DNA from: an uncultured bacterium
Lineage (GTDB): Bacteria > Patescibacteriota > Gracilibacteria > Absconditabacterales > Absconditicoccaceae
Direction of reading: 5' to 3'
Assembly (NCBI GenBank): GCA_947169045.1
Contig: CAMVOC010000001.1
Span: 1 to 64,000, forward strand
DNA: 64,000 bases
Both the position numbers and the translations under genes were made by a program. Below, piece after piece: positions 15,799 through 58,627 of the stretch. The notes beneath the pieces were generated by a model. It saw only the letters and a program-made list of their open reading frames with translations. It had not been told where the DNA came from and did not search any database. Within the stretch, counting starts at the first letter, position 1, and each line of letters opens with the position of its first letter.

Positions 15799-16509
15799 AT
15801 GTATAATTGACAAAAAGTTTCAGTAGTCTTCCCTGCTTATAATGAATGCGAAAATATTTTTGATGCAATAAAAGATTTTAAAAGCACAGGATATGTTGAT
15901 GAAATTATAGTAGTAGATAATAATTCAAAAGATAATACAGCTGAATTAGCAAAAAAAGCCTGAGCTACTGTAATTACAGAGAAGAATCAATGATATGGTT
16001 GGGCTAACAGAAGATGACTCAAAGAAGCATCATGAGATATAATTGTGACTTGCGAACCCGATTGAACCTTCGTTGCAAAAGATATCTTAAAATTGCTAAT
16101 ATATTCGGAGGATTTTGATGCTGTATTTTGAACTAGAACATCAAAGGAATGTATATGGGATTGAGCAAAAATGAATCGATCATTGAGACTCGGGAATGTA
16201 ATCGTGGCTAAATGGTTAGAATGGCTATTTAACGGGCCATGTTTAACAGACGTTTGATGCTCTTTTAAATTAATTAAGAAAGACTCTTTAAAGAAAATCG
16301 AAAATAAATTTACAGTTTGATGATCTCATTTTTCTCCAGAATTTATGTTACTTATCATAAAAAACGGAATCAAATGTGTTGAAATCCCTGTGAATTATAA
16401 AAAAAGGATATGAGAGTCAAAAATAACAAGTGATAATCGAAAAGCCTTCAAACTAGGATGTCGTATGGCATGAATGATTTTTGCTTATAGAATTTGATTA
16501 AAAAAATAG
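15799..16509 (+). CDS. GT2 family glycosyltransferase, DPM1/GtrB-like
   Basis: This 236-residue GT-A glycosyltransferase has the N-terminal nucleotide-sugar-binding strand VSVVFPAYNECENIFDAI, the DxD-equivalent EIIVVDNNSKDNT, and a second acidic motif (DIIVTCEPDGTF). It lacks C-terminal membrane helices, unlike the GtrB at 17550. The start ATG TAT at 15799 places the first strand at residue 5. TGA codons are dense. It probably transfers a sugar to a polyprenyl phosphate or to a growing glycan, and works with the adjacent GtrA-like protein. Confidence 0.82.
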
Positions 16510-16532
16510 TTTTATTTATTGTTTATTTAATA

Positions 16533-17525
16533 ATGACAAAAGTCTTAATTACCTGAGTCGCTGGTTTAGTATGAGCAAATTTCTCAAGGTATCTGTTAAA
16601 TAGAGGATACGAAGTAATTGGGATTGATGATTTTTCTGGATGATATAGAGATTTTGTGGATGAACGTGTAAAATTATATGATATAAATCTGATTGAATAT
16701 GAAAAATTAGAAGAAATTTTTAAAAAGGAAAACATAGATTACGTATACCATTTTGCAGCATATGCAGCTGAATGATTATCACCTTTTATGAGAAGATTCA
16801 ATTATACAAATAATTTGATATGTTCTGTGAACGTTATAAACAACTGTATAAATTATAATGTAAAAAAACTTATATTTACTTCTTCTATGTCTGTTTATTG
16901 ATTTGGAAATCCTCCTTTTGTTGAATCTCAACAGCAAGCACCAATCGATCCATATTGAATAGCAAAATATTCTGTTGAGCAAGACATAAAACAAGCTCAC
17001 GATCAATTTTGATTGAGATATACAATTATTAGACCTCACAATATCATATGAATATATCAAAATATTTGGGATAAATACAGAAACGTTGTATGAATTTGGA
17101 TTAGACAATGCATTAATTGAGAAAAAATATCCATATTTGGAGACGGAGAACAAAAAAGAGCATTTTCTGACATTTATTATTATATGGAGCCATTTGAAAA
17201 AGTGATGACAGTATGAGATTCTGAAATATTTAATCTATGAGCCGATCAAGAATATAGAATTATAGACGTGGCAAATATTGTAAAAAACATAGCAAAAAAG
17301 AAGTGATTTGATGTAGATATCTTACATTATGAAGCAAGGCACGAGGTCAAAATAGCATATTCAGACCACACAAAGGCAAAAACTATGTTAGATTTCAAAG
17401 ATGGAACCGATATTAATATTCTTATAGAGAAGATGTTTGATTGGGCTTTAACTCAACCAAAAAGGGAAGTAAAATACAAAGATTATGAAGTTGAAAAGAA
17501 CATTTATTCTTTTTGGAAGAAATAA
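16533..17525 (+). CDS. NAD-dependent sugar epimerase/dehydratase (extended SDR)
   Basis: This 330-residue extended short-chain dehydrogenase has the NAD-binding motif LITGVAGLVGANF, in which two of the three glycines of the GxxGxxG pattern are TGA. It also has YVYHFAAYAAEG, the Ser of FTSSMSVYG, and the catalytic YxxxK (DPYGIAKYS). It resembles UDP-glucose 4-epimerases and related nucleotide-sugar epimerases. The exact sugar cannot be fixed from sequence alone. It lies between two glycosyltransferase genes with short gaps. Confidence 0.82.
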
Positions 17526-17549
17526 TTTATACTTAAATGATTATCGTTT

Positions 17550-18488
17550 ATGAAGAGAATAAGCATTATAGTACCATGTTACAATGAGTGAGATTCCGTC
17601 CATGAACTCTATAATAAAGTAGTAGATATGTTTTCTACTTCATTAAAAAAATATAATTTTGAAGTGGTGTTTGTTGACGATTTTTCGAAAGATAATACGA
17701 GAGATGAAATCAGAAAATTGTGCGAGCAAGACAAAGAACATGTAAAAGCTGTGTTTAATAGTACTAATTTTTGATTTTCAAGAAATATATTTGCCAGTTT
17801 CAAATATGGTAATGGTGATGCTATATTTTTAGTTTTTTGAGATTTACAAGATCCTCCAGAACTGTTGCCAAAATTTGTAGAAAAACGGGAAACCTGAAAT
17901 AATGTTGTTATTTGAGAAAAAATATGAAGTGAAGAAAATAAAATTATATCATTTTATAGAAGATTATATTATAATTTAATTTGAATTTTATCGGAAACGT
18001 CGCAAATTAAGAATTTTAATGGATTCTGATTATATGATAAATCATTTGTAGAAGTGATTAATGAGATCAACGATATGTCCCCTTATTTAAAGCAAGTAAT
18101 CGCAGAATATTCAAACAATTATGGCATTATAAAATATGAGCATAAAAAATCACATAGGTGAAAATCTAATTTTAATTTCTATCGTAATTATGATTTTGCG
18201 ATGGAATGAATTACATCGTCTACAAAAAAATTAATGAGGTTATCAACATTAATTGGTTCAATACTTATGATATTAAGTATCATCTACGCTTGTTATGTAT
18301 TTATTAAAAAAATTATGTATCGGGATTCATATCCGATTTGAATAGCCTCACTTACGATTTGAATATTTTTATTGTGATCAATTATCTTATTTTTTATTTG
18401 AGTTTTGTGAGAATATGTACTTACCATAAATACAAAAACCTTGAGACGTCCGAGAGTTGTTGTATGAGAAAAAATCAATTTTGATTAA
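17550..18488 (+). CDS. Polyprenyl-phosphate glycosyltransferase (GtrB/ArnC-like GT2)
   Basis: This 312-residue protein has an N-terminal GT2 domain (ISIIVPCYNEGDSVHELY, FEVVFVDDFSKDNT, FLVFGDLQDPPELLPKF) and two C-terminal membrane helices (residues about 235-290), the GtrB/ArnC/PglF-like architecture. Such enzymes charge undecaprenyl phosphate with a sugar on the cytoplasmic side for later flipping. With the GtrA-like gene upstream it would make and move a lipid-linked sugar. TGA encodes most glycines, including those in CYNEGDS and VFGDLQ. Confidence 0.85.
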
Positions 18489-18514
18489 ATTTTAACATTT
18501 AATAGCTAATTAAA

Positions 18515-19180
18515 ATGGATTCTAATGCTTATTTCCAAACCAGATTAAGTCAGGATAAATCACGCCAAGTGCTATGGCCAATAATATGTAATTATGTACA
18601 AAATTTTATTTGAAAAGATAAAAAAATTTTAGAATTGGCCTGTTGATACGGTGATTTTATTAATAACATTTCAGCAAAAGAAAAATACGCTACGGACATA
18701 TGGGAATGATCAACAAAATTTTTAAATAATGACATTAATTTTAAAGTCTGAGATTTATCAAAAATCGGATGGGAACAGACATATAAGACTGATTATTTTG
18801 ATTGTATCTTTATGAGTAATTTTTTAGAGCATCTTGATGATGAACAGATTCAAACATTAATGGATGGAATTAAAAAAATTATTAATAAAAATTGAAAAAT
18901 TGTAATTATACAACCTAATTTTCATTATATGTATAAAGAGTATTTTGATGATTATACTCATAAAAAAATTTTTACACATATTAGCCTATGTGATTACATT
19001 GAATCAAATTGATTCCAAATGATACATTGCGAAAAAAAGTTTTTGCCTTGATCATTTAAGAAAAATAGATTACCGTTGCAACTAAGTAAATTATGATTAA
19101 AAATGTATTTTAAGCAGAATTTTATAAGATTAGGAGGACAAATGTTTTTAGTTTTTGAAAAGAAAAAATGAGAAAAATAA
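18515..19180 (+). CDS. SAM-dependent methyltransferase (class I)
   Basis: This 221-residue protein has motif I ILELACGYGDFINN, the acidic end of strand 2 (ATDIWEG), and MSNFLEHLDDEQIQ as motif II/post-II, all typical of class I methyltransferases. GKIVIIQPNFHYMY follows. Three of the glycines near motif I are TGA. It probably methylates a sugar or another small molecule in the polysaccharide pathway. It overlaps the next gene by 13 bases (ATG at 19168), suggesting coupled translation. Confidence 0.8.
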
Positions 19181-20916
19181 GTAATTTTATTAGGAATAAT
19201 TATGCCATTTTAATAATATTTTTATGATTTTTAGCGACTAGAATCTATAATTTTAGTGATATCATTTGGTATGAGACATCCAGTGAAATATTGCAAATTT
19301 TTCAATTTATAACAATAAAATGACAGATATTTAACCTTATTCCACATTTCCCATTAGCTACAATATTGTATAAAGTTTGAACGGTAGTAGCATGAAATAC
19401 CATAATATGAGTAAAAGCGATGCATATATTTTTAAATATTTTAACATTTTTCTTAATTTATAAAACATCCATTCTGTTTTATAACGATAAAAAAGTTGCC
19501 AATTGGTCAGTGCTACTCTATACAATTTCATTCTACGCCTATGTATGAAATACAATGTGAATTGATCAGGATTTAGCGACAAATCCATTATTTTTTATTT
19601 TGACGTTATATTTATATAAAAAATATTCTGATTTCTCAATAAGGGGTATAGTATTAACAGTGTTAGCGTGCTCTCTACTTACAACTTCTAGACCTATACT
19701 GTGAATTATTGTAATGTGAATAATATTCCTTGATTTGATATCAAAATATGTCGTACAAAATAGTAAAAAAGTGAAATTCTCGTGAATAATGTGAGAGGTC
19801 ATCAGATTTTTAAAACTATTTGTACCATATTTAATCGTTTGATGATTAGTATGTTATGGGATGTTTAAACTATTCCCAAGCTCTGTCGCACAAGATCTGA
19901 ATATATACAAAAATTTATTTAATTGAGCGGGGTGAGGAGGAAATCTATTGACAAAACTTGCATTTTTAGGGCACGTTTTTATGTACGCATCACCTTTAAT
20001 ACTTTCTTTATTCTTTTTGTTTAAAAACTACGCAAAACATCAAACCATCTTGATAGCGTCAATAGTAATGATTCTTTATATGTGTATGTGATTATCTTGA
20101 GGAGACCCTGCAAGATGGATGATGCCAATATTACCAATATTTGTAATTGGACGGTGATACCTGTGTTCTAAATATATAAATAAAAGAGAGATAATTTGAA
20201 TTATAGTCGTTGCAGCTATAATAATTATATTAAATACAACGCTATTAGATTATCATAATTTACCCGCTAATATAAGTGATTATTTATCAAATATTTTTAA
20301 TAGGGTTTTCCTTCTAGAATCTACGGTATTTAATCCGATATTCTTAGATACCAAATTAGTATTTTGAATAGCTTGAGCTGCGCTTATATTCTTTTTACTG
20401 TTTATATTCTCCACAAATAACAAATTAAAATCATTGTTTTTTGTCTTTTCTCTTTGAATTAATATTTGACTAATATCAATTCATTTATTTCAAATAAAGC
20501 AACCTCATATAAGTGATATTTCAAAGAGAATGTATGAGTTTTGCGCTGAAAATTGCGATTGAAATCAAAAAATTTATGCTGATCAAGTATCAAAAGATAC
20601 TATCATGTTATGAGTACGAGAGAAAAATGTTTGAAGTTATTTTAATTTACACCCAGAGAATGATATTATATGAAAGACACAATCCTTGTGAAATAATTTA
20701 ATAAAATTAGAAGGAGTAAACCTATTCACACAAAGAATGAAACAGCAAGATTTCACAGATCTTATTAAAGAAAATTGATCAGGGTTCGCATTTCTAACAA
20801 ACTATTTTAATAATAATGAAGAGATCGAAATTTTAAATAAAAAATGCAAAATCATAGAAAAGTTTGATTGAGGGGTCGAAGAAATCTATTGAATCATATA
20901 TCTATGTGATTTTTAA
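19168..20916 (+). CDS. GT39-like multi-spanning membrane glycosyltransferase
   Basis: The 582-residue protein has about ten to twelve membrane helices and a C-terminal extracytoplasmic domain of about 140 residues. The layout matches GT-C enzymes of the PMT/ArnT/GT39 type, which take sugars from polyprenyl-phosphate donors outside the membrane. It is heavily interrupted by TGA (about 35), with no TAA or TAG until 20914. The early loop IYNFSDIIWYETSSE contains the acidic residues expected for the catalytic loop. It would use the lipid-linked sugar made by the GtrB-like enzyme. Confidence 0.72.
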
Positions 20917-21007
20917 CTTTTCTATTGATAAGTTTTAATATTTTCGTACATTTGAGCCAACATAATAAGATAACAGAATAATTTTTATAACGTATAAAAA
21001 GATAATT

Positions 21008-21553
21008 ATGGAAAACAGTAATGTATCAAAACTAAATTTATGATGTTGATTTGATATTAAACCAGGATATGTTAATGTCGACGGAGTCTCATGAGAATGA
21101 ATTGATGAAGTTTTTGATTTTGAAAAGACTCCATATCCATTTAAAGATAATACTTTTGATGAAGTGTATTGTTCCATGGTTATGGAGCACATTCATAACT
21201 TACCGCAAATGATTGATGAGATTGTTAGGATCTGTAAAAATGGTGCTATCATACAAATCATTGTCCCTTACCAAAGTTCTCCAAATTTACGGTGAGATAT
21301 TACTCATATTAGAGGATTTAATTTGAACTCATTTAATCACTATCATGAGAATTCAATCATATTAAAAAATGGAAAATTTAATGTCGAAAGGCAAAGGATA
21401 CATTTTTTATCCAATGAAACCTTTTTAAAATCAGATGCAATAAATTTGATTCCTGATTTTTTTATAAATTTATTCCCTAAAATATATGAAAGATTCTTTT
21501 CGTATATTATACCAAGTTCAAACATTCATTACGAATTAAAAGTATACAAATAA
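21008..21553 (+). CDS. SAM-dependent methyltransferase, small
   Basis: This 181-residue protein begins KLNLGCGFDIKPGYVNVDGV, methyltransferase motif I with both glycines of GCG read from TGA or nearby codons. YPFKDNTFDEVYCSMVMEHI and RICKNGAIIQIIVPY follow. This is the pattern of methyltransferase domains common in LPS and capsule loci. The target is unknown. There is a gap of 91 bases from the GT39-like gene, with no terminator seen. Confidence 0.75.
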
Positions 21554-21649
21554 AGATTTATTTCCGCGATATGTATAAGACAAACAATCCTTATTTCCAA
21601 AATATCATAGATAAATATCAAAAATAATACTTTTCTAGTCAATTTCATA

Positions 21650-21677
21650 TTGCATTTCCCTATATACTCCATATACT
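21650..21677 (+). promoter_or_regulatory. Putative promoter upstream of gmd
   Basis: TTGCAT 21650-21655, a 16-base spacer and TATACT 21672-21677. It closely resembles the element at 15301-15328. The ATG of gmd is 81 bases downstream of the -10 box. Confidence 0.5.
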
Positions 21678-21757
21678 AAAAAAGCAAAATCACCATACAG
21701 ATCGAATTTGAGCATTTATAACTAGTTCGTCTGTCTTTAATTTTTTGTTTTGAGCTC

Positions 21758-22857
<1,100 letters not shown>

Positions 22858-22858
<1 letters not shown>

Positions 22859-23322
22859 TGTTTATAGATGAGAAAACTTATAAAATCATAGTTGATAATT
22901 GTATTATTCCAACATGTGATATCATTTGCATAACAAAAGACAAGACAATTCTTCTTTGTTTAAGGAATAATGAACCCTTAAAATGAGTATATTATATCCC
23001 CTGATGAAGAAGATATAAAAACGAGAAAATGGTTGACTCTGCAAAGAGGAAAACTTATGAAGAGTTGTGAATAAAAGTCGATATCAATAGATTAACGTTC
23101 CTATGAGTTTATGATGATATGTACGATAATTCAGCATTTGAATGAATATCAACACATTGCGAGGCTGTAACCTTTGTTTATGAAATAAATGATGAAGAAA
23201 TCCAAAATATAAAAATAGATAATCAGCATTCTGATTTCAAATTCTTTAGCATATACGATACTTGATTGCATAAACAAATCTATGAAAGAATAAAAGATAT
23301 TAAAAAACTTTTTAATTTCTAA
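22858..23322 (+). CDS. gmm: GDP-mannose mannosyl hydrolase (Nudix)
   Basis: This 154-residue Nudix protein resembles GDP-mannose hydrolase: CIIPTCDIICITKD, then YYIPGGRRYKNEK and KRKTYEELGIKVD as a divergent Nudix box. It lacks one of the usual Glu residues, as GDPMH enzymes do. GDP-mannose hydrolases release GDP and mannose and are commonly found beside gmd in capsule and colanic-acid loci, where they may tune GDP-mannose supply. Most glycines are TGA, including those in IPGG. Confidence 0.85.
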
Positions 23323-23331
23323 TATGGAGTT

Positions 23332-24501
23332 ATGGGTATAAGACTAATCAAATCTAGTTTCTATCATGAGCAAGAAACCAAAGATAAGCTCTGCGACTTT
23401 ATTCAAAAATCTACACAATTGAGTATATCAGAATATTGTAAAGAGTTTGAAAAAAAATTCTCACAATGGCAGGGGAGAAAATATACAGTTTTTGTAAATA
23501 GTTGAAGCTCAGCGAATCTCATTTTATTACAATCATTATTGAATGTATGAAAAATCAATAAATGAGATAAAATTTGATTTTCCTCATTAACATGGGCAAC
23601 AAATGTAATGCCGATAATTGAATTATGATTAACCCCCATTCCTGTAGATGTTGATTTAAATACATTAAACACTTCCTCTCAAACCCTCCAAGAATGTTTA
23701 AAAGAGAATAACATAAAAGTGCTATTTATAACCAACTTATTATGATTCTGCGATGATATAGATAGTATTAAAGAAATTTGTAATGAAAAATGAATAATTC
23801 TTCTTGAGGATAATTGCGAATCTATGTGAACAGTATACAAAGGAAAAAAACTCTGAAACTATTCACTGGCCTCAACCTTTTCTACGTATGTATGACATCA
23901 TATGTCTACGATCGAATGATGAATGGTTTGCACGGATGATGAAGAATTATATAAAATGCTCTATATGACAAGGGCTCATTGACGAGATAGAAATCTACCA
24001 AAAGAAGAACAAGATAATATTAGAAAAGAATACTGAGTTGATGGAACATTCTATGCGAAATACACATTTTATACTATGGGATTTAATGTGAGACCAAATG
24101 AAATAGCGTGATTTATAGGATGTGAACAAATTGGTTATTTAGATGAGATAGTGCAAAGAAGAGATCAAAATTTCAAACGTTTCATAGAAAAAATAAATCA
24201 GAATGAAGATTTTTATAAAATAAAATATGAACATATAGATTTGTTATCTAATTTTGCAGTGCCAGTTATCTGTAAATCAAAAGATATATTAGAAAAATAT
24301 ATTAAAAAGTTTGGAGAAAAGGATATTGAGATTAGGCCAATTGTTGGTGGAGATATTACTCAACAGATTTTCTGGAAAAAACTCTATTGAGAGAATCAGA
24401 AAGATACAAATGCAAAATTAATTCATGAGCAAGGTTTCTATTTCTGAAATAGCCCAGAGTATACGGAAGAAGAAATATCTTTATTATTAAGTTTAATGTA
24501 A
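23332..24501 (+). CDS. colD: ColD-like PLP-dependent GDP-4-keto-6-deoxymannose 3-dehydratase
   Basis: The 389-residue DegT/DnrJ-fold protein has the PLP-binding features VNSGSSANLILLQSLL and LLEDNCESMG. At the position of the catalytic lysine it has His: STYVGHHMSTIEGGMV, His189-His190. Replacement of that Lys by His marks the 3-dehydratases ColD and RfbH. It has no Fe-S cysteines, so ColD fits better than RfbH, and its length matches ColD. ColD removes the C3 hydroxyl of GDP-4-keto-6-deoxymannose using PLP and glutamate. It lies between gmd/gmm and a ColC/Fcl-like gene, as in colitose clusters. Confidence 0.85.
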
Positions 24502-24502
24502 T

Positions 24503-25429
24503 ATGGAGTTAAATTCTAAAATATATGTTGCATGACATGGATGATTAGTATGAAGTGCAATAGTAAGAAAACTTAGGGATAAATGATATAATAACTTGAT
24601 TTTGAAATCGAAAGATGAATTAAATCTCCTAGATCAAAAAGCAGTTTATGAATTTTACGATAAAGAGAAACCTGAATATGTTATCGATGCTGCAGCTAGA
24701 GTATGAGGGATAAAAGCAAATATGACCTATCCAGCAGATTTCCTTTTCGAGAATCTTCAAATTCAAAATAATGTAATATGGTGAGCTCATCTATATTGAA
24801 TTAAGAAATTACTCTTTTTATGAAGTAGTTGCATATATCCAAGAGAATGTCCACAGCCAATGAAAGAAGAATATTTTATGGATTGAAAAGTAGAACCAAC
24901 CAACGAATGATATGCTTTGGCAAAAATATCATGAATGAAGTTATGCGAAAAAATATATGAACAATATTGAAAACAATTCATATCGTGTATGCCTACGAAT
25001 ATTTATTGACCATGAGATAATTTTAATCCAGAATCTTCGCATGTTATACCGGCATTAATTAGAAGAATGCATGAAGCAAAAATAAACAATATTTATGAAG
25101 TAGTAATTTGGTGAACGTGAGAAAGTAGGAGAGAATTCTTATACGTTGATGATTTATGAGATGCATGTGTTTGGTTGATGAATAATTATTCAGAAAAACA
25201 ATTCTTAAATATCTGAACTTGAAAAGATATTTCCATAAAGGAGTTGGCATATTTAATAAAAGATGTAGTATGATATCAATGAAATTTAGTATTTGACTCT
25301 TCTAAACCGGACGGAATGCCAAAAAAGTTATTGGATGTTTCTAAAATATGAGAACAATGATGGAAATATAGTATTGAGTTGGAAGAATGATTAAAATCAG
25401 AATATGATGATTTTTTAAATAATATTTAA
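24503..25429 (+). CDS. colC: GDP-L-colitose / GDP-L-fucose synthase (ColC/Fcl family)
   Basis: This 308-residue SDR of the GDP-fucose synthase family has [56 protein letters not shown] and NEGYALAKISGMKLC (YxxxK), then MPTNIYGPGDNFNP. All are strongly conserved in Fcl and ColC, which share a fold and a 3,5-epimerase/4-reductase chemistry. The ColD-like gene directly upstream makes ColC (GDP-colitose) more likely than Fcl. Sequence alone cannot prove which. The gap to the preceding stop is one base. Confidence 0.85.
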
Positions 25430-25461
25430 ATTACAATTTACTTCATTATCTTATTCTACCA

Positions 25462-26229
25462 ATGAAAACTGTAATCCTTGCTTGATGACTGTGAACAAGA
25501 TTAGCAGAAGAAACAGTCATTAAACCAAAGCCAATGGTTGAAATTTGATGAAAACCAATCATTTGGCATATTATGAAAATATATTCTCATTATGGATTTA
25601 ATGAATTTATTGTTTGTTTGGGATATAAATGATATTATATCAAAGAACGGTTTGCAAACTATTTTCTCCATAATAGTGATGTGACAATATCTACTAAAGA
25701 TAATTCAATAGAAGTTCATAATTCTCATACCGAAGATTGGAAAGTAACATTAGTCGATACTTGAGATGCAACTATGACTTGAGGAAGAATTAAAAGAGTC
25801 AAAGATTATATAGATGGTGATGAGTTTATGATGACTTATTGAGATTGAGTAAGTGATATAGATATTAAAAAATTAGTTGATTTCCATCATTCTCATTGAA
25901 AATTAGCAACATTGACCGCTGTAGTGCCAGAAGGAAAATTTGGGAAATTATGATTAAGCTGAGATCAAATCACAGAATTTGCTGAAAAAAAAGATAATGA
26001 AGAAACCTGGATTAATGGATGATTTATGGTATTGAATAAAAAAGTATTAGATTACGTAGAATGAGATTCTATGCCTTTTGAAAAAGCTCCACTAGAAAAC
26101 ATAGCTAAAGATTGAGAATTAATGGCTTATAAGCATTTTTGATTTTGGTCTCCCATGGATACAATCAAGCAAAAGAATGATTTAAATAATTTATGGGATA
26201 AATGAGAAGCTAAACGAAAAATTTGGTAG
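25462..26229 (+). CDS. rfbF: Glucose-1-phosphate cytidylyltransferase
   Basis: The 255-residue protein matches RfbF: KTVILAGGLGTRLAEETV, KPKPMVEIGGKPIIWHIMK, CLGYKGYYIKERFANYF, EFMMTYGDGVSDI, INGGFMVLNKKVLDY and FWSPMDTIKQKNDL. Length is within two residues of the family norm. The whole nucleotide-binding GG-G motif is written in TGA codons. It makes CDP-glucose from CTP and glucose-1-phosphate, the entry to CDP-3,6-dideoxyhexoses and yersiniose. RfbG and RfbH follow downstream. Confidence 0.93.
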
Positions 26230-26254
26230 TTTTAATTGTAATCTATTTTTTGCT

Positions 26255-27211
26255 ATGATATGAAAAAATAAGAGAATTCTTATTACTTGATGAAATGGTT
26301 TTGTATGAGCAAATCTAGTTAGAAGACTTGTTAATTTATGATATCAAAATATTTCTCTTATATTGAGAGAATGATCTAATTTCTGGAGAATAAATGATAT
26401 TTTAGATAATGTTAGTGTTAAATATTGATCACTAACTGACAAAGAGTTTTTGGAAAAAATTGTAAAAGAGATAAAGCCAGAAATAATTTATCATTTAGCT
26501 GCAGCCTGAGCTTATATATGAAGAGATTGAAAGTGAGTTAGTGACCTATTTACTACAAATGTATTATGAACAATTAATCTTTTAAATGTATGTAAAGATA
26601 TTTGATTTGAATATTTTGTAAATACATGAAGTAGCTCTGAATATTGAATTAAAAATCATCCAATTAAAGAGGATGATCTATTAGAACCGAACAATGAATA
26701 CTGAATAAGTAAAGCATCAGCAACTATGTATTGTAGTTTTATTTGAAAAAAATTTAGTTTACCAATATATACATTCAGGATTTTTTCTGCTTTTTGACCA
26801 TATGAAGATAAATCTAGATTAATTCCATCATTAATGTTAAAATACATAAATAATGAAGCTCCAGAATTATCTACTCCTAATTCTGTCAGAGATTTTATTT
26901 TTATAGATGACATTGTGAATTACTATTTAAACATTGATTTGATAGATGGAGAATTTTGATGAATATTTAATTTATGAACATGACATCAGCATTCAATTTG
27001 AGAAATAGTTGAAATGGTTAGAAAAATATCTAAATCTGACATTAATCCTAAATATTGAGTGATTTCAATAAAACAAGACGAGCCGAATATACGAGAAGCC
27101 GATATAACTAAAACGAGCAATTCATTTAAAATAAAGACTACGGATACGTACGAATGATTAATACTTAGCTATCATTGGTATCTTGAAAACAAAGCTCTTT
27201 ATCAGCACTAA
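26255..27211 (+). CDS. NAD-dependent nucleotide-sugar reductase/epimerase (SDR)
   Basis: This 318-residue extended SDR has RILITGGNGFVGANLVRRL, IIYHLAAAGAYIG, FVNTGSSSEYG and NNEYGISKASATM (YxxxK). Its position between rfbF and an acetolactate-synthase-like enzyme suggests a CDP-linked 4-keto-sugar as substrate. It could be the final 4-reductase (abequose/paratose-synthase type, or the reductase of yersiniose synthesis). That is inference from context. The start ATG ATA TGA at 26255 gives seven residues before the first strand. The gene is dense in TGA. Confidence 0.78.
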
Positions 27212-27220
27212 ACGACCGTA

Positions 27221-28996
27221 ATGAAAATTAGTGATTATATTATAAAGTTTTTATGCGATATGTGATCTGATACGATTCTCAGTTTTTCATGATGAATGAT
27301 TACTCATCTTGAAGATTCAGCATATCTAAATAAAAAAGTAAAACTAATATCTGTAAGGCATGAACAATGATGAGCTTTTGCAGCTGAATGATTTTCTAGA
27401 TCATCAAATAAAATTTGAATAGCGATGTGAACAAGTTGACCATGAGCAACCAATATGATTACATGAATAGGAAGTGCATATTTTGATTCCGTCCCTGTAA
27501 TATATATTACATGACAAGTTAATACGTATGAGTTAACTAAAAATCAACAAGTTAGGCAAACATGATTTCAAGAAACTGACATTGTCTCAATGGTATCAAA
27601 TATAACAAAGTTTTCTTACCAAATAAAAGATATTTCCGAAGTTAAATACGTTCTAGAGAAAGCTTTTTTCATTTGTAATCATGGAAGAAAATGACCGGTA
27701 TTAATTGATATACCCATGAATATTCAAAGGAGTGAAATTGATGAAAATAGCTTAATCTCATATTATAAGTCTAAGGAATATCAGGAGATAATAAATGAAG
27801 ATAAAAAAAGAGAACAAATATTAGATAACGATGTAGACATTCTCCTTAAAGAACTTAATAATTCAAAAAAACCAATAATTTTAGTTTGATGATGATGTAG
27901 GTTAGGTGGAGGCAAAAAGATTTTATGAAAAATCGTAAAAAAATTAAATATTCCAGTAGTTTCATCATTACAATGATTAGACGTTTTTAATCATAATGAA
28001 AGAAATTACATTTGAATGATTTGAGTACATGGAAATAGATATGCAAATATTACTCTAATGAACGCCGATTTAGTACTTGTGCTATGATCTAGACTAGACA
28101 TTCGTCAAACCTGAGCTTTAAAGGATAAATTCTGTAGTAATGCTAAAATTATACACGTAGATATAGATAGTAATGAGTTGTGATATAATGTTAAACATAC
28201 TTATAAGAGGATTCATCAAGATTTGCACAAATTCTTGGAGATGCTTGCTACAAAAGAACTAAAAAATAATCAATTACGAAACGAATGGTTAGATGAAATT
28301 AATAAAGTAAAATCTTTATTGATTAGTATTGAGACAAAGAAAAAGGATAATTGATATTATAATATGAATTATCTATTTGAAAGATTTTCAGAATATTTAC
28401 CGAAAGAATCAGTAATTGTTAATGATATTTGAGAAAATCAAATGTGGTCTTCTCAATCTTTAAATTTATGAAAAGATCAACAATTGTTAAATTGCTGATG
28501 AATGTGAGCTATGTGATTTTCACTTCCTACAGCCATGGGTGCATATTTCGCCAATCCTAAAAAGAAAATCATATCAGTGAGTTGAGATTGATGATTCCAA
28601 TTGAACATGCAAGAGCTAGAAACGATCTCTCTCCACAAAATACCACTACTTATGATGGTTCTTAATAACAAATCGTTATGAATGGTTAAAGAATTTCAAA
28701 ACGCTTATATGTGAGGGAGAAATATATGAACAGTTATTTGATATTCTTGTCCTAATCTAAAAAAAATTGCAACGGCCTTTTGATTGAAGTATTTTAAGAT
28801 ATGAAAAAATAGTAATTTAGAAAAGATTTTTACTAATGTTTTAAGTCAGAAATTACCGACAATCCTTGAAATTGAAGTATCTAAAGCATCAAAAGTTGTA
28901 CCTAAAATGATGTTTTGAAACTCATTAGATAACCAAGCTCCAGAATTATCAGAAAATATTAAGAATAAAATTTCAGATATTTTACATTCTAATTAG
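27221..28996 (+). CDS. Acetolactate-synthase-like ThDP enzyme (YerE-like candidate)
   Basis: The 591-residue protein has the three domains of the AHAS family. The catalytic Glu lies in SVRHEQGGAFAAEGFSR, and MGTSGPGATNMITGIGSAYF follows. The ThDP motif begins SVSGDGGFQLNMQELETI and ends MMVLNN, the GDG-x25-NN pattern. It is not near ilv genes. Within an rfbF-rfbG-rfbH cluster the known parallel is YerE, which adds a two-carbon branch from pyruvate to CDP-4-keto-3,6-dideoxyglucose in yersiniose A synthesis. The YerE role is inference. Confidence 0.8.
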
Positions 28997-29002
28997 TATA
29001 TA

Positions 29003-30046
29003 ATGCAAAATTTCTACAAAGGGAAAGTAGTTCTAGTAACTGGTTCTACATGATTTAAATGATCATGGTTAAGCTTTTGGTTATCTAAATTATGAGCTAA
29101 AGTTATAGGCTATGCTTTAGAACCCAATACGAATCCCAATTTATTCTCTGTTTTAAACCTAAACAACAAAATTAATCAGATTTTTTGAGATATTTCTGAT
29201 TATAAGAAATTAGAAGAAATAGTAGAGCAAAATAAACCAGAAATGATATTCCATTTAGCAGCACAACCAATTGTTAGAGAAAGTTATGATAATCCAGTAT
29301 ATACGATGAATACTAATGTAATGTGAACGATAAATATAATGGAACTGATAAGGACGAAAGAATATATAAAATGATGAGTGATAATCACAACAGATAAGGT
29401 ATACGAAAATAAAGAATGGTTATGGCCATATAGAGAGAATGATAGATTATGATGATTTGATCCATATAGCAGTTCAAAAGCTATGGCAGAATTAGCAGTA
29501 GAAAGCTATAGAAAGTCGTTTCTACAAAAAACAGATAAAAAAATCTGTATAGGTAGAGCATGAAACGTTATTTGATGATGAGATTGGGCAAAAGATAGGC
29601 TCATTCCTGACATTATTAGATCTTTGCAAAATAATGAAAATGTTGTTTTAAGGAATCCAGATGCTGTTAGACCTTGGCAATATGTGCTAGATGCTCTACA
29701 TTGATATTTAATTGCATGAATGAAAATGTTTGAAGATGATAAATATCAATGAGCTTATAATTTCTGACCAGATATAACTGATACTTTAAAAGTAATAGAC
29801 ATTGTGAAACAATCGATTGAAATTCTTTGAAGATGATGATATGAAATTAAGCCGGAGATGAATCAGTGAAAGCATGAAGCGTGACTATTATTGCTAGATA
29901 ACACGAAATCCAAAACATTACTTGGATGGAATCCCAAGTATAACGTTCATGATGTACTAATTAGAACACTAAATTTCTATAAGGAATATTATGATTGAAA
30001 AAATATGGAAGAATATGCTAATAAAGAAATTGAGACGTACTTATAG
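29003..30046 (+). CDS. rfbG: CDP-glucose 4,6-dehydratase
   Basis: The 347-residue SDR matches RfbG: VVLVTGSTGFKGSWLSFWL, IFHLAAQPIVRESYDNPVY, NVMGTINIMELI, ITTDKVYENKEWLWPYREN, DPYSSSKAMAELAVESY and NVIGGGDWAKDRLIPDI. My hand count gives 23 of 28 glycines as TGA, including three consecutive TGA codons in IGGGDW. It converts CDP-glucose to CDP-4-keto-6-deoxyglucose, the substrate of RfbH encoded next. Confidence 0.93.
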
Positions 30047-30075
30047 TAAATTTTTATTTCACATTATAAATAATA

Positions 30076-31296
30076 ATGTACACAAAGGAAGAATTAAAAG
30101 AATTTATAGATTCTAAAAAGCAGAATTTTATTCCGTGAGAATCAGCAATTCCTGTTTCTGGGAAGGTGTTTGATGAGAATGAATTAAGTAATATGATTGA
30201 GGCGGTAATGGATTGTCATTGGACAGAATGAAGATGGAATGAAAAATTTGAAAAATGATTGTCAGAATTCCTTTGAATAAAATATGCTGCTACAACAAAC
30301 TCTGGAAGCTCAGCTAACCTTTTAGCACTAACTACATTAACATCAAAAGAATTATGAGATAGACAATTATTACCATGAGATGAAGTAATTACAGTTGCAG
30401 CATGATTTCCAACAACAATTACACCTATTATTCAAAATAGATTAATTCCAGTTTTTGTAGACGTGGATTTATGAACATATGAAGTAAATATTGAGGCTCT
30501 TAAACAAGCTATTTCTCCGAAGACTAAATGTATTATGTTAGCTCATACTTTGTGAAATGCATTTAATCTTTGAGAAATTACAAAGATATGTAAAGAGCAT
30601 AATTTATGGCTCATTGAAGATACATGTGATGCATTATGAACTACATATAATGGACAATATATTTGAACATTCGGAGACATTTGAACATTGTCATTTTATC
30701 CAGCACATCATATTACCACAGGAGAATGATGAGCACTAATTACAAACAATCCTTTACTTTATAAATTAATTAAACAGTTTAGAGATTGGTGAAGAGATTG
30801 CCGATGTAAAACTGGACAAGATAATAGTTGTTGAATGAGATTTAAGTGGAAATTATGAAATTTACCAGAAGGTTTTGATCATAAATATATCTATTCAAAA
30901 ATAGGATATAATTTAAAAATAACCGATATGCAGGCATCTATTTGAGTAGCTCAACTAGATAAGCTTCCGAATTTTATCCAAAAAAGGAAGGATAATTTCA
31001 AATATTTGAAAGATAAATTTATTGAAAATTGATTAGACCAATATTTTATTTTACCTGAAGCTACAGAAAATTCAGATCCAAGTTGGTTCGGATTCTGCTT
31101 AAGTTTAAAAGAGGATTCATGAATTAATCGTGAAGAATTATTACAATATTTAAATAATAATAAAATTTGAACTAGATTACTATTCGCATGAAACTTTACT
31201 AAGCAACCAGCTTTTTTAGACTATGTAAAAGATTATAGGATTGCGTGAGAACTTAAAAATACCGATTATATTGTTAGTAATACATTTTGGTTATAA
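30076..31296 (+). CDS. rfbH: CDP-4-keto-6-deoxyglucose 3-dehydrase, C-terminally truncated by nonsense codon
   Basis: The frame matches RfbH (E1): SGSSANLLALTTL, the Lys-to-His substitution FYPAHHITTGEGG (His211-His212) and the [2Fe-2S] cysteines in DCRCKTGQDNSC. It ends early at TAA 31294-31296, after 406 residues, in NTDYIVSNTFWL. Directly downstream, still in frame, the family's missing end continues as VFPGLTNEMLDFSVLKIKKF to TAA 31372-31374. The stop stands where family members have Gly, so TGA (Gly) to TAA is the simplest change. It could be a real truncation, a lineage polymorphism or a sequencing error. The reductase partner RfbI is not in the window. Confidence 0.85.
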
Positions 31297-31360
31297 GTGT
31301 TCCCATGATTAACTAATGAAATGTTAGATTTTTCTGTTTTAAAAATTAAGAAATTTATCG

Positions 31361-32150
31361 ATGAAAGAAAATAACATTTTAATTAGCGTTCTTGTCCCGA
31401 CTTATAATAGAGTAAAATATCTAGGGGAATGTCTCGATAGCATAGTTGAGCAAAAATGATTTAAAAAAGAAGAAATAGAAATATTAATTGGAGATAATTC
31501 TGAATGAGATGAAACAAAAGAATTTATGGAGTCTTACCTAAAAGACCATCAGAAATATGAAATTATATACATAAAAAATAAAACAAATTTATGATGAATC
31601 ACGTTGAGAATATTACATCATCCTATCAGATGATGATAAATTTTATGATAAAAATAGTTTAAAAAATATTTACGATTGATTATTAAAATACAAACTAGAT
31701 GTATGCTACTGAAAGTATAAAGTTTTTAATAGCGATTGATCCAAAACTCGAGAATACAGACCACACGAAAAAATAAAGAATAAAAAGCTGTATATTGATA
31801 CTTTTGATGACCAAATTCTATGACACACTATGACTTTTGGTGGAGTTTTATATAGACAGTTAGGATATCGTTATGACAAAGCATCAAAATGGATGTGTGA
31901 TCGGAATATGAATCTACAATATCTATACCATAAAAAAAGAGTTTGAATGATAAATAACTATACATTCTTATACAGGGTACACGATACAAATGACACATAC
32001 ACAATTCCTAAAGTATTTTTTTGGAAATTCGTTCTGTATTCATATAATTTTTTTAATATTCCTATCTTCAAAAGAGTGTTTTATTTTATTAAAATGATTA
32101 TAAGGGCCATTTTAAGGAGAATAAGACGGTTTATTGAAGATCATTTTTAG
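31361..32150 (+). pseudogene. GT2 glycosyltransferase disrupted by frameshift/deletion
   Basis: The first part (frame of ATG 31361) reads ILISVLVPTYNRVKYLGECL, EILIGDNSEGDETKEF and IIYIKNKTNLGG, a clear GT2 start. It then loses homology and stops at TAA 31637-31639. From about 31605, in another frame, GEYYIILSDDDKFYDKNSL continues the family's second acidic motif and runs to TAG 32148-32150 with a basic, hydrophobic C-terminus. About nine codons that usually lie between the NLG and GEY motifs are missing, so a small deletion plus frameshift is likely, unless it is an assembly error. It overlaps the leftward GT4 gene tail by 20 bases. Confidence 0.7.
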
Positions 32151-33282
32151 TGCTTGTAAGTCCTTTATAAACATTAATAATTTCTGCTGTTATAGTATTC
32201 CATGAATATTTTTCTTTTGCTAATTTTAAAGCATTATCAACTATTATTTGTATATTTTTAGCATTATAGGACAATATTTCTTCAATCTTTTCCGCAAAAG
32301 CTTCTGAATCTTCATTTTCAACCAAGAAACCATTTTTTCAATCAATAATTATATCTTCAGGTCATCAACATTTTGTAGATATAACAGGAATTCAACTAGC
32401 CATAGCTTCAAGTACCATTATACCGAATCATTCTGTTCTCGAAGACACTAACATTATATCCGACTCTGAATATATTTTAGCTAATTCTGTTCATACAATT
32501 TTTCATCTAAAATGTATATAGTTTTCTAATCAAAGGTTTTTAACTTCCTGTTTATATTTTTGTTCATCGTATCAATATCAGATAATATTTAACTCAAAAT
32601 TTTCTAAATGTTTCTCTTTAACTAAAATATCAATCGCTTTTATCAATATATCAACTCATTTTGTCCGTTCTAATCTTCAGACAAATAAAAGCTTTTTTAT
32701 TTTATTTTTTAATACATTTTTATTGATAACAAAATCTTCAAGATTTACTCAATTTCATATAACAACTGGTTTGTTAACATTTTTGTATTTTAAGAAACTG
32801 CTTCAAACGGTTATTTCACAGTCATATTTTATTTTAGTAAGAATCCAATTTTCAAAGTAATACAGAAGATTTTTTTCTCCTTTATCCAAGATATTAGCTC
32901 AATGATTAGTGATGACAATAGGGATTCATTTGAGAGCTGATAACAATTTCCCCATTGGAAATAAAAGTGGAGAATGCACATGGATAATATCATATTTATG
33001 TTTTTTACAATTTCTGAAAAACAAGAGTATAATGGCAAATAAAGAATTAAACCTTCAATACAAGTTAAAAAAATCTGTCTTCCTTCAACATCTAAAAATC
33101 CTTATTTTATTTCAATAGAGATATTGAATTTTTTCAAAATGTTCATTCTCAATTTTTAAATTTCTCGTATAAATATCAATTTCACATCAATAATCTCTTT
33201 GCAAAATTTTACATATATTTTCCACATGGGTTCTTCATCATCACACAATATCCCAAGAATCAAAAAGTATAGCTATTCTCAT
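32131..33282 (-). CDS. GT4 family glycosyltransferase
   Basis: The 383-residue GT-B glycosyltransferase starts MRIAILFDSWDIVGGGRTHV. Mid-protein is LFVGRLERTKGVDILIKAI, and near the C-terminus the GT4 EX7E signature lies in SSRTEGFGIMVLEAMASG, followed by GGPEDIIIDGKNGFLVEN. GT4 enzymes are retaining transferases that commonly act on lipid-linked or polymer glycans in the cytoplasm. Many glycines are TGA. It is the last gene of the leftward half of the polysaccharide locus and is convergent with the broken GT2. Confidence 0.88.
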
Positions 33283-33304
33283 ACAAATGATATAAAAAGC
33301 TAAA

Positions 33305-34282
33305 TTAATTACCAAAAAAATCACTGATTATACTTATGAGATTTTCAGCCCATCATTCACCAAATCGTTCTTTAAATTTAGATTCATCATCCATAAATGT
33401 ATTAATCTCATAGATATATGCGTTATATTCAGATTCTTTCATATTTTCTAAATAACTAGTCAATTTATCAAAATTTTTATCGAATTTTCTGAAATCTATA
33501 AAACATGTTTCAGGGATATAATCAGTTATGTCATTTGCACCTCGATAAATTGGAACAGATCTTGCCTGAAGTGATTCCCAAATTTTCTCTGTTACGTATC
33601 CATCCACCTTACACATATTTTCAAAACAAATATTGAATTTATACTGAGATAATGTCTCTATTTTGTCATCAACAGGTCATTTATAGGACGGATATGATTG
33701 ATATCAGAATATTTTCTGTTTAAAATTAGGTTTATCCCATCAAAATCAATATAAATCAAACTCTTTACCATTCTTTTCATAATATCTAATCGCTTTTTCC
33801 CTTCGGGAATATAATTCATTTCTTACGAAACTATACTTATTTCAGTTGATTAAAGTCAAAAATTTTTTCTCGTTGAACGATCTTGGCTGAATCTTAGGTC
33901 TCTTCATCTCAAAAGGAATGGTTGGTAGCCATTTATAATTATTTTTCTTGAGTAACGATTTATTTCGCGTAAGTATTAAATCAAAATATGTATGTAATTT
34001 TTTACTATACATAAAAGGAGCAACAACTGGCGGTTCCAAAATTACCAGTACTTTCCTGTTATTTGGATATTTTGATATTAAATTTTGAAGTTTTTTTTCA
34101 AAATAATCTTTCGCGCCTACTTGTAGAAATGAAACTATAATGAATTGATCTTTACCTTCTCTACTATCAAGTTTATCTATAGTTAAAAAGTCAGCGTTTC
34201 ATATCTTTTCAACAAAATACTTTAAGGGAGGTTGTAAAACGGTACTAGTATCTAAACCATATGGTATAAGTGCAATTTTCAT
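33305..34282 (-). CDS. GT10-like (alpha-1,3-fucosyltransferase family) glycosyltransferase
   Basis: The 325-residue protein has the GT10 donor-site motif split as YKFNICFENMCKVDGYVTEK and IWESLQARSVPIYRGAND, followed by YIPETCFIDFRKF. GT10 enzymes use GDP-L-fucose to fucosylate glycans. Here the window encodes a GDP-colitose-type pathway. Colitose is 3-deoxy-fucose, so this enzyme could transfer colitose or fucose. That is inference. An Arg-rich segment (NELYSRREKAIRYYEKNG) precedes the donor domain. Only a few TGA codons are used compared with its neighbours. Confidence 0.8.
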
Positions 34283-34300
34283 CGTATTTATGTATATAAT

Positions 34301-35365
34301 TTATAAATTATCTAGTAATATCTGTGCTGTATTTTTCCATTGATATTGATTTATCCAATCCATTCACCTAGTTTGTTGATCTTTATAATAATCAATATCA
34401 TTAAATTTTCTTATTTCATTAATAAATTCTTCAATATCGAAATCTTTTACTTTTATACCTCAACGTCAAACAACTTCATCCATACACGAGTGATCTTTAT
34501 AAATAACAGGAGTCCCATAAAAAATCGACTCTAATGGCGGAAATCAAAATCAATCGTAATCTGAGATATATATGGATAGCTTCGCATTCTGATATAATTC
34601 AATCAATTCTAAACCAGATATTCTATCAGTAATGATTTTAATTTTATTATTTGATAATTCATTCACTTTTCATGTTGGTTTTAATACGATAACGCTATCG
34701 GACAATCAGCTTTCAATAATTTTATTTGTTAATTCCAAATAAAATCAAGTGGGATTATTAGGAAATGGGAATAATATATAATTTTTTTTATTTCATGCAT
34801 ATTGAGAAGTCTCTTGTAAATGATCCATTCATCGATGCATTACTATTATGTTATTTTGATGTATTCATAATTTTTCTATTAAATCTTTTTTAGTGTTTTT
34901 CGAGGGTGTAAATATCTTATCTGCTAAATGGTAAGAATATTCTTCAAAAGGCATAAAATAATAAATAAAATCCTTAAATTTGAGATTTCATACCAAAAGC
35001 TCTTTGAAAAGTTTCCACCTTCAAAGAATTTTAACTAGAATATCATGAGAAACACAATAATATTTGCAAACTTTTCTAAGAGGAAGCTGTTGATCCAAAG
35101 AAATATATAGATCTACATCGTGTTCTTTCAGTATCTTTGTAACTCCAAAAAATTTATAACTAATATAATTGGATTCATAAACAATAAGTTTACCATTTGG
35201 AAAATTATTAAAGTTTTGTAGGTATTGGTCATTTATTTTAACATTCGTTACAAAATAATACGTATTTTTTGTATCGAGTTCCATTAAAGCATCAACGAGA
35301 CCTCTAGTAACAACACCAAATCAAGATAATTTATTATAATGTGAAACATCAATGGCAATTTTCAT
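34301..35365 (-). CDS. GT4 family glycosyltransferase
   Basis: The 354-residue protein begins MKIAIDVSHYNKLSGFGVVT, a GT4-type N-terminal strand and glycine loop. NYILFPFPNNPTGFYLELTN follows, then the donor domain LSIYISDYDGFGFPPLESIF with YGTPVIYKDHSCMDEVVG and GRGIKVKDFDIEEFI. This fits GT4 (mannosyl- or rhamnosyltransferase-like). TGA codons are read as Gly. It is in the same direction as the GT10-like gene, with an 18-base gap, so they are probably co-transcribed. Confidence 0.82.
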
Positions 35366-35398
35366 TATAAATAGGACTTTATAAAATAAAAAACAGCC

Positions 35399-36514
35399 TT
35401 ACACACATTCCAGCACCTCATCAACCTCAATTTTATTAATCGAATACTCCAAATCTTTCTCTCGTCTCCCTAAATGTACCTTAATATAAGCTTCTCATCT
35501 ACCTTTATACAATCAAATATTTCTAGTTAAAGGATAAGGCCCAAATTTTCTCGGAATCTCTGGCCCAAACAGCCCAATAGTCCTCGTTCACATCGCTGCA
35601 GCTAAATGCATCGGCCCAGTATCATTTGAAATCATCAAATCACACCTCTCGAGCAAATACGCAAATCAAAAAATATTAAACATACCACAGATATTAATGA
35701 CTTGAGTATGATACGATGCGGGTAGAGCAGTGTAAATCTCTTGCACAGCACCATATTCTCACTGAGATCACGACAAAAGAATGATAGTATCACGATGTTG
35801 ATCCAATACCTTTTGAATTAAAGCAGTCCATTTAACCTTTGGCCAAGCTCTTTCTTTTACGGTTTCTGCTAATCAGGTATGCATACAAATAAGTCTACCA
35901 TACTTCAATCTTCCCAAAAATTCATCTACTTTAACTTGATCTTTATCCGTATATTTCAATGGCTCCAAAGCTTCAGGAGCCCTATAATCAATTCCAATTA
36001 CCCTAATCAAATCCAAACAAGTGACACAAGCATGCTGCTGATCATTATAAACGATTCCTGTATTATAAGCTAATCATCTGACTTTAATATTTGTATATCA
36101 GCAATTGATTTTTCATAACCAAAAAGACAAAAAAGCTGACACCATAAAATATTCTTCCGTATCAATAACGATATCATAGGTTTTAAAGCTAAAAAGTAAT
36201 TTGAGCATATCTTTAGCAGAGAATAAGTTATACCTATGCTTAAAATATCACTGATTCTTAAAAACTCAAATATTCCTGGTACTAGCAAGCAAATCATATT
36301 GCACTCATGCTCAGTAGTGATCTTCTAATTGCTTAATCATAGGGAAAGTAAGCAAACTACTTCACAACGCCCACAAACGAATAACGAGAATTTTCTTGGG
36401 ATGCTGGAGAATCTTACCTCTCTTTCAAACAAAAAAATATTTCATCCAAAAAAGAAGCAAAACAAAGAATCCAACGAAATACTTATCTATCTGCCTTAAA
36501 ACTTTTACGTTCAT
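35399..36514 (-). CDS. GT9-like (ADP-heptose:LPS heptosyltransferase family) glycosyltransferase
   Basis: The 371-residue protein has an N-terminal hydrophobic segment (FVGFFVLLLFWMKYFF) and then the GT9 start KILVIRLWALGSSLLTFPMI. TYDIVIDTEEYF is followed later by the donor site SNDTGPMHLAAAMGTRTIGL with FGPEIPRKFGPY. Family members add heptose or related sugars using ADP-sugar donors. An RfaE-like nucleotidyltransferase gene lies 32 bases upstream. The organism may lack LPS, so the acceptor is unknown. TGA glycines are common here too. Confidence 0.85.
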
Positions 36515-36546
36515 AAGAATATCTCACACCATAAAACAAGCATCCG

Positions 36547-56764: not shown

Positions 56765-57295
56765 ATGGCAGAACAAAAGCCACAATCTCTAAAAGAAAAA
56801 TTAGAGACATTAAACTCTGTCCTATCTTTATGGGACAAAAGATTAGGAGACGCCAATGAGTATCTCAGATTAGTTGCTGTAAATCTGTTCAATGCAGAGA
56901 AATTAAGCAAGTTTCTAGATGAGTTAAAAGAACGACTCTCCGACACGAAAACACTTAATGACAAAGTAGCATTGCTACGACAAGGGACCATAGCATCTCT
57001 CCTCGAAACCATACAGCAATGTCACGAATCAATGACGAGCAAAGCATTCGAACTAGACGAAGAATTCCCTAAAAAACTAAAGGAACTCCAAAAAGGGAAA
57101 GAACAGCTCATCAAAGAAATAAAAAGTTTTCAATGGGATAGAGACATCCTAATCGGAGATACGAAAGAGCTGCAAAAAAAGGTAAAAGAATTCTTACCTG
57201 AGAAATACCAAAATGGTATTGACTTCGATAAGGAAATAAAAGACCTTGTCTGGCAATCTTTCGAAATAGAAAACAAATTCACCAATGAAAAGTAA
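56765..57295 (+). CDS. Array protein 4: coiled-coil (176 aa)
   Basis: The 176-residue highly charged helical protein (SLKEKLETLNSVLSLWDKRL, KKLKELQKGKEQLIKEIKSF) ends FEIENKFTNEK. It contains no signal peptide, no TGA codons and no recognised domain. Hydrophobic residues repeat at heptad-like spacing, which suggests coiled coils. Its own promoter and AAGAAGGCG-type terminator flank it. Function unknown. Confidence 0.7.
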   Translation: MAEQKPQSLKEKLETLNSVLSLWDKRLGDANEYLRLVAVNLFNAEKLSKFLDELKERLSDTKTLNDKVALLRQGTIASLLETIQQCHESMTSKAFELDEEFPKKLKELQKGKEQLIKEIKSFQWDRDILIGDTKELQKKVKEFLPEKYQNGIDFDKEIKDLVWQSFEIENKFTNEK

Positions 57296-57303
57296 ACAAC
57301 ACA

Positions 57304-57331
57304 AAAGAAGGCGTTTCGTCTTCTTTTTTTT
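57304..57331 (+). terminator. Array terminator 4
   Basis: AAAGAAGGCG 57304-57313, loop TTT, CGTCTTCTTT and T run. Confidence 0.82.
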
Positions 57332-57394
57332 AACAAAAGCAAAAAAATCTGATTTTTATCTCTTTGCCCTCTTAAACTACCAACCAAACTGACA

Positions 57395-57422
57395 TTGACT
57401 TTTAATAAAGAATAATTATAAT
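57395..57422 (+). promoter_or_regulatory. Array promoter 5
   Basis: TTGACT 57395-57400, 16-base spacer, TATAAT 57417-57422. Confidence 0.75.
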
Positions 57423-57454
57423 CAAGCATTGATAATAAAAAAACAGGAGAAATT

Positions 57455-57961
57455 ATGTTAACAAAAGGGCGATTATTAACAAAATGGGAGCTGTTTGATC
57501 TAAATTTTGCAGGCGTTAAATGGGATGAAGCTTTTGAAAAATTAAGTAGTGACGTATTACAACCATGCATCGTGCAACTACATGCTACGAAAAAATTAGA
57601 AGAAGAAACCCAAAAAAAAGTCAAAGAATGCCAAACTGATGCAACAGAAATTCGCAAGAAGCTAAACGAGTTAAGAGAAAACATAATACCGATCTACCAA
57701 AAAGTAGATAAATGCGAAAACGATCCCAGCAAAAACGATAAAGAATTCTTAAAAGAGCTAGAAAGAATCGGAAGAGACAAAGTACAGCTCCGAAGAAAAG
57801 CAAAAGAAATACACGACAGCAAAATCAAACTCCTCAAAAAAACCAAAGAATTTATGGAAACAACGGGAAAGTTACTACCAGACGAATTCAAAAACACCGC
57901 AGTTGAAGTACAAAAAGAAATACGAAAAACAACAAGAACATGGCCATTATTACAATTATAA
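57455..57961 (+). CDS. Array protein 5: coiled-coil, paralogue of the 55621 gene (168 aa)
   Basis: The 168-residue helical protein starts MLTKGRLLTKWELFDLNFAG and is related to array protein 2 along its length. Compare LTKREL with LTKWEL and the shared IP-QKV---E/C block. It lacks the hydrophobic start of protein 2. It has no TGA codons. Ribosome site GGAG. The paralogy shows that the array grew at least partly by duplication. Function unknown. Confidence 0.72.
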   Translation: MLTKGRLLTKWELFDLNFAGVKWDEAFEKLSSDVLQPCIVQLHATKKLEEETQKKVKECQTDATEIRKKLNELRENIIPIYQKVDKCENDPSKNDKEFLKELERIGRDKVQLRRKAKEIHDSKIKLLKKTKEFMETTGKLLPDEFKNTAVEVQKEIRKTTRTWPLLQL

Positions 57962-57979
57962 ACCTCCAAAAATTTTTTC

Positions 57980-58007: not shown

Positions 58008-58070
58008 CAAAAGAAAAAAAGCTGACAGCCAATTTACACATTTTCTAGAACTTTCAGCCAAAAAAAGCTA

Positions 58071-58617: not shown

Positions 58618-58627
58618 AATATTTACA

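What the first reader, a model, noticed from the sequence alone, without database searches (positions are those of the whole stretch)
31291..31374. rfbH stopped by TAA exactly where family members have glycine
Seen: ...NTFWL-TAA, then in the same frame VFPGLTNEMLDF..., which is the expected continuation of RfbH (FW-G-xxPG). Glycine here would be TGA in this locus, so a single G-to-A change (TGA to TAA) creates the stop. This is a failure mode special to UGA-Gly genomes: every TGA glycine is one transition from a stop.
Basis: partly seen in the sequence, partly recalled or inferred. Interest (0 to 1): 0.6.

Follow-up and report, generated by a model that had tools for sequence, protein, structure and literature searches.

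The report
Sugar-enzyme gene cut by glycine-to-stop mutation
In a bacterium that reads UGA as glycine, a surface-sugar enzyme gene (rfbH) has picked up a stop codon where all its relatives have glycine, and the next gene is broken too, so this is most likely an ordinary decaying gene cluster, although the route (glycine UGA to stop UAA) exists only in such recoded genomes.

Summary
Confirmed. rfbH (30076-31296) ends at TAA 31294-31296, and its frame stays open for 25 more conserved residues to 31374. All eight fetched homologues (50-77% identical) have glycine at this invariant column and continue past it. The closest one, from another Absconditabacteria genome, has TGA there. The genome has RF1, no separate RF2 and a tRNA-Gly(UCA). 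The truncation removes a well-predicted C-terminal helix. The overlapping next gene, a glycosyltransferase, is also broken, by a small frameshifting deletion, so the end of this CDP-dideoxysugar operon is probably decaying. The operon lies in an AT-rich, TGA-rich island unlike the rest of the genome.

The "special failure mode" idea is half right. TGA-Gly codons supply about 25-44% of possible nonsense mutations in this gene, and all three other confident nonsense lesions found in two TGA-rich relatives are also TAA at TGA-Gly. But total exposure to nonsense mutation is not higher than under the standard code, because UGA no longer terminates. This genome shows no other nonsense lesion in 150,213 compared codons. 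Reads were unavailable, so assembly or strain-mixture error remains possible. An ordinary pseudogene with an instructive mutational route.

The parts
30076..31296 (+). rfbH/ddhC (CDP-4-keto-6-deoxy-D-glucose 3-dehydrase), truncated to 406 aa; 24 of its 33 Gly codons are TGA
31294..31296 (+). premature TAA at an invariant glycine column; TGA at this codon in the closest relative
31297..31374 (+). orphaned in-frame 3' end of rfbH (25 conserved codons plus the ancestral stop), encoding the C-terminal helix
31361..32150 (+). family 2 glycosyltransferase overlapping the old rfbH end; broken by a small frameshifting deletion near 31595-31600
   Evidence: N-terminal part matches PF00535 profile positions 1-66, the rest matches 78-150 in another frame
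29003..30046 (+). rfbG/ddhB, CDP-glucose 4,6-dehydratase, intact
   Evidence: TIGR02622 E 7e-140
27221..28996 (+). acetolactate-synthase-like ThDP enzyme, YerE-like, intact
26255..27211 (+). NAD-dependent epimerase/reductase, intact
25462..26229 (+). rfbF/ddhA, glucose-1-phosphate cytidylyltransferase, intact
   Evidence: TIGR02623 E 3e-121
15799..36532 (.). AT-rich, TGA-rich polysaccharide island (gene GC 24-35%; TGA share of Gly mostly 0.55-1.0, genome median 0.16)

Best explanation
The TAA is a real, recent nonsense mutation of a TGA glycine codon (G to A) in rfbH of an Absconditabacteria genome where UGA means glycine and only UAA/UAG terminate. It truncates the enzyme by 26 residues, cutting at the end of the last strand and removing the C-terminal helix, and probably inactivates it. 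The CDP-3,6-dideoxysugar pathway that depends on it, and the now frameshifted glycosyltransferase behind it, are probably out of use: a decaying cassette within a horizontally variable polysaccharide island. Shown: stop, open tail, invariant glycine, TGA in the nearest relative, the neighbour's lesion, RF1-only and tRNA-Gly(UCA). Inferred: direction and recency of the mutation, loss of function, reality of the base.
For: Glycine is invariant at this column and TGA in the closest relative. The tail is still in frame and conserved. RF1 is present and no separate RF2 was found. A tRNA with anticodon UCA has the acceptor end G1:C72, C2:G71, G3:C70, U73, the glycine criterion used in PMC8629427. 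Residues 411-430 are predicted at pLDDT 93-97, spanning helix 414-430. The glycosyltransferase is independently broken, while its counterparts in relatives are intact. No second RfbH-type copy exists: the only other match in this genome is 30% identical. Across 441 shared genes and 150,213 codons no other nonsense lesion was seen, so the assembly is not full of false stops.
Against: No reads or sister strains were available. The gene is known here from one draft assembly, and two lesions within about 310 bases could also come from a badly resolved strain-variable spot. All recognised catalytic residues lie upstream of the stop, so some activity of the short protein cannot be excluded.
Confidence: 0.78

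Rival explanations
1. The TAA, and perhaps the glycosyltransferase deletion, is an assembly or sequencing error, or a consensus of mixed strains at a strain-variable polysaccharide locus.
For: Multi-contig draft genome (13 contigs); two lesions lie about 310 bases apart; polysaccharide loci vary between strains.
Against: No false-looking nonsense codon in 150,213 codons shared with a relative, and the island is otherwise clean: every other gene checked is open and near full length.
Confidence: 0.14
2. The 406-aa protein is still functional, and the stop is a tolerated C-terminal trimming.
For: The RfbH active-site His pair (211/212) and the cysteines 184, 242, 244, 252 are all upstream of the stop and intact.
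Against: The stop replaces an invariant glycine, all homologues keep the tail, and the lost segment contains a confidently predicted helix. The neighbouring glycosyltransferase is also lost.
Confidence: 0.06
3. UAA at former UGA-glycine sites is still read as glycine at some rate, so the gene is not broken.
For: Two of the three other TAA-at-TGA-Gly cases have no other lesion visible in the stretch inspected.
Against: RF1 is present and UAA is the usual stop. TAA at glycine positions is very rare (3 among about 7,660 compared TGA codons). tRNA-Gly(UCA) would need a second-position mismatch to read UAA.
Confidence: 0.02

Closest known systems
RfbH / DdhC / E1, CDP-6-deoxy-L-threo-D-glycero-4-hexulose-3-dehydrase (PDB 3bcx, 3bb8)
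   Same: Full-length family match up to the stop; the paired His and the four cysteines are conserved
   Different: Ends 26 residues before the family's C-terminus
CDP-yersiniose-type branched dideoxysugar operon (DdhABC + YerE-like ThDP enzyme + reductase); YerE acts on CDP-3,6-dideoxy-4-keto-D-glucose (PMC12247030)
   Same: Same set of enzymes side by side in the window
   Different: rfbH is truncated. The two UGA-Gly relatives carry a two-subunit transketolase instead of the YerE-like enzyme. Product not tested.
Nonsense-mutation pseudogenes in general
   Same: A single-base change to a stop with the downstream frame still intact
   Different: The parent codon, TGA-Gly, exists only under NCBI code 25 (Absconditabacteria and Gracilibacteria)
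UGA = glycine recoding (code 25), with CGA/CGG = Trp in Absconditabacteria (PMC4032931, PMC8629427)
   Same: Both features seen here
   Different: Nothing new about the code itself

Membership tests
RfbH (NCBIfam NF011936) | score above the curated cut-off | tested here: met
   646.7 bits against 423
RfbH (NCBIfam NF011936) | His in place of the usual PLP-binding Lys (FYPAHH motif) and four cysteines spaced C-X57-C-X1-C-X7-C (motif recalled from knowledge) | tested here: met
   H211/H212 and C184, C242, C244, C252 invariant
RfbH (NCBIfam NF011936) | complete C-terminus | tested here: not met
   match stops at profile position 414 of 440; TAA at 31294
RfbH (NCBIfam NF011936) | dehydrase activity | not testable with these tools
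   needs an enzyme assay
UGA-glycine genetic code (table 25) | TGA aligned with glycine in homologues | tested here: met
   974 of 1227 TGA codons align with Gly in G007 (counting TGA as Gly there too); in rfbH they align with GGN Gly of standard-code relatives
UGA-glycine genetic code (table 25) | no RF2; tRNA with UCA anticodon and glycine identity | tested here: met
   the prfB model finds only the prfA gene; tRNA. The genome is 93% complete, so absence of RF2 is not absolute.
Pseudogene by nonsense mutation | stop inside a conserved domain, with homology continuing in frame behind it | tested here: met
Pseudogene by nonsense mutation | the base is supported by reads or sister strains | not testable with these tools
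   no reads and no second strain held

The most novel reading that the evidence does not exclude
In UGA-Gly bacteria, TGA-glycine to TAA is the dominant nonsense route of gene loss, more than codon numbers and mutation bias predict. All three other confident nonsense lesions found in two TGA-rich relatives are of this kind.
Probability: 0.25. Interest if true: 0.4.

Novelty: new member of a known kind. Interest (0 to 1): 0.22.

Why it matters
It is a clean example of a mutational consequence of recoding: freeing UGA removes some routes to a stop (from TGG, CGA, AGA and others) and opens one new one (TGA-Gly to TAA), with roughly no net change in exposure. It also warns annotators that in UGA-Gly genomes a stop at a conserved glycine is a likely sign of a recent pseudogene, and that table 25 alone mistranslates Trp here.

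Tried and rejected
Homologues naturally ending at this place: none. A spare rfbH copy: none; the second hit is a different DegT enzyme at 23332-24501. Viral copies: none. A homology-free scan for broken genes gave, in this genome, only what look like neighbouring gene starts. The TAA flagged in prfA of G005 turned out to be the gene's end. The TAA flagged in a DegT gene of G034 (L008) was not pursued as a glycine-to-stop case: its frame is open over about 400 residues. Most raw in-frame stops were shadow reading frames and were removed by a coding-frame test. No reads, strain variants or metagenome scans were available.

Full report
What is there. Under UGA = glycine the gene at 30076 reads as RfbH (DdhC) for 406 residues, meets TAA at 31294-31296, and continues in the same frame for 25 residues to a second TAA at 31372-31374. 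NCBIfam places it in RfbH with E 1.5e-194, matching up to profile position 414 of 440. The closest solved structures are 3bcx and 3bb8, aligned up to the residue before the stop.

What relatives have. In eight fetched homologues, from two UGA-Gly genomes and six standard-code ones, the position is always glycine and the protein runs on for another 23-35 residues. The solved 3bcx/3bb8 protein (437 aa) also extends 26 residues past the last aligned residue. The nearest homologue, in an Absconditabacteria assembly (L003/L032), has TGA at this very codon; the next, L004/L033, has GGG. No homologue ends here. A G-to-A change of TGA is therefore the simplest history, although direction rests on two near relatives.

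The decoding machinery. The genome has prfA (RF1), and the prfB model finds only that same gene. A tRNA with anticodon UCA has the acceptor-stem and discriminator bases that PMC8629427 used for glycine identity. UGA-Gly translation was shown by proteomics in a related lineage (PMC4032931). In addition, CGA and CGG codons of this genome align with TGG Trp codons of a relative and not with the other Arg codons, matching the Trp reassignment reported for Absconditabacteria in PMC8629427, so table 25 is incomplete here. This does not affect the stop.

Consequence. The structure predicted for the read-through protein (mean pLDDT 81) puts residue 407 at the end of a strand (403-407), followed by a helix at 414-430; pLDDT is 93-97 over residues 411-430. 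Truncation removes this helix. The active-site His pair and the four cysteines are upstream and conserved. Loss of function is likely but inferred.

Surroundings. The gene sits in an operon of glucose-1-phosphate cytidylyltransferase, an epimerase/reductase, an acetolactate-synthase-like ThDP enzyme, CDP-glucose 4,6-dehydratase and RfbH. YerE, a ThDP enzyme of this type, acts on CDP-3,6-dideoxy-4-keto-D-glucose in yersiniose synthesis (PMC12247030), and RfbH belongs to the route that supplies that sugar (established pathway knowledge), so the product may be a branched dideoxysugar (inference). The next gene, a family 2 glycosyltransferase starting at 31361 inside the old rfbH end, is also broken: its first part matches profile positions 1-66, the remainder matches 78-150 in another frame, consistent with a deletion of roughly 30-36 bases. 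In the two UGA-Gly relatives the corresponding glycosyltransferases are intact and overlap rfbH in the same way. Two lesions in a row suggest decay of the operon's end, and the early stop may also have uncoupled translation of the glycosyltransferase (inference).

Island. Genes from 15.8 to 36.5 kb have 24-35% GC and mostly use TGA for 55-100% of glycines (one intact gene 47%). The genome median is 16% and genome GC is 36.5%. TGA share falls with GC across the genome (r = -0.68). The island looks like the TGA-rich relatives (medians 0.65-0.67), which fits acquisition from such a donor, though AT-richness alone could produce it.

Is this a special failure mode? I estimated substitution rates from fourfold sites of 139 orthologue pairs between two TGA-rich relatives and combined them with codon usage. 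TGA-Gly contributes about 25% of possible nonsense changes in rfbH, 21% in the TGA-rich relatives and 7% in this genome overall. Raising the G-to-A rate up to fivefold, to allow for saturation, gives 44%, 40% and 15%. The total nonsense target is similar to, or slightly smaller than, that of the same genes in the standard code. Searching for in-frame stops flanked by homology and passing a coding-frame test left three confident cases in relatives: a flavodoxin-like gene and a small membrane protein in G003, and a TfoX-N-like gene in G007. All three are TAA at a TGA glycine. The gene names are by eye, and the small-membrane-protein case has a weak downstream coding score; two further stops that passed the frame test, at Lys codons in G007, and the stops in G000 that passed it (one over a tRNA gene, two in front of a gene start) were set aside by eye because coding signal lies on one side only. 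Three of three has probability 0.009-0.06 under shares of 0.21-0.40. Counted only against the other transition-accessible codons (about 7,660 TGA versus 13,900 CAA/CAG/TGG compared) it is about 0.045. The index case is excluded from these figures. In this genome, 150,213 codons in 441 genes compared with G007 showed no confident nonsense lesion, so rfbH stands alone here.

Verdict. A real-looking, ordinary pseudogene with a mutational route that only UGA-Gly genomes offer. Reads are needed to exclude error or strain mixture.

Noticed in passing
whole genome G000; rfbH codon 243 (CGA): CGA and CGG are read as tryptophan in this genome and in G007, besides UGA = glycine; table 25 mistranslates these as Arg.
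   Followed up: yes
31361-32150: Glycosyltransferase directly downstream is broken by a roughly 30-36 base frameshifting deletion near 31595-31600.
   Followed up: yes
15799-36532: AT-rich island where TGA encodes most glycines, against about 16% in the rest of the genome; similar TGA-rich blocks lie on contig C7 around 15-40 kb and elsewhere.
   Followed up: partly
25462-31296; L032 and L033: Apparent CDP-branched-dideoxysugar operon; the window has a YerE-like ThDP enzyme where two relatives have a two-subunit transketolase, suggesting exchange of the branching enzyme.
   Followed up: partly
G003:C2:28312, G003:C9:2084, G007:C6:48047: Three other in-frame TAA codons at positions where a relative has TGA glycine.
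   Followed up: partly
56765-63278: Series of short ORFs (about 110-190 aa) on the + strand with few glycines and no TGA; function not examined.
   Followed up: no
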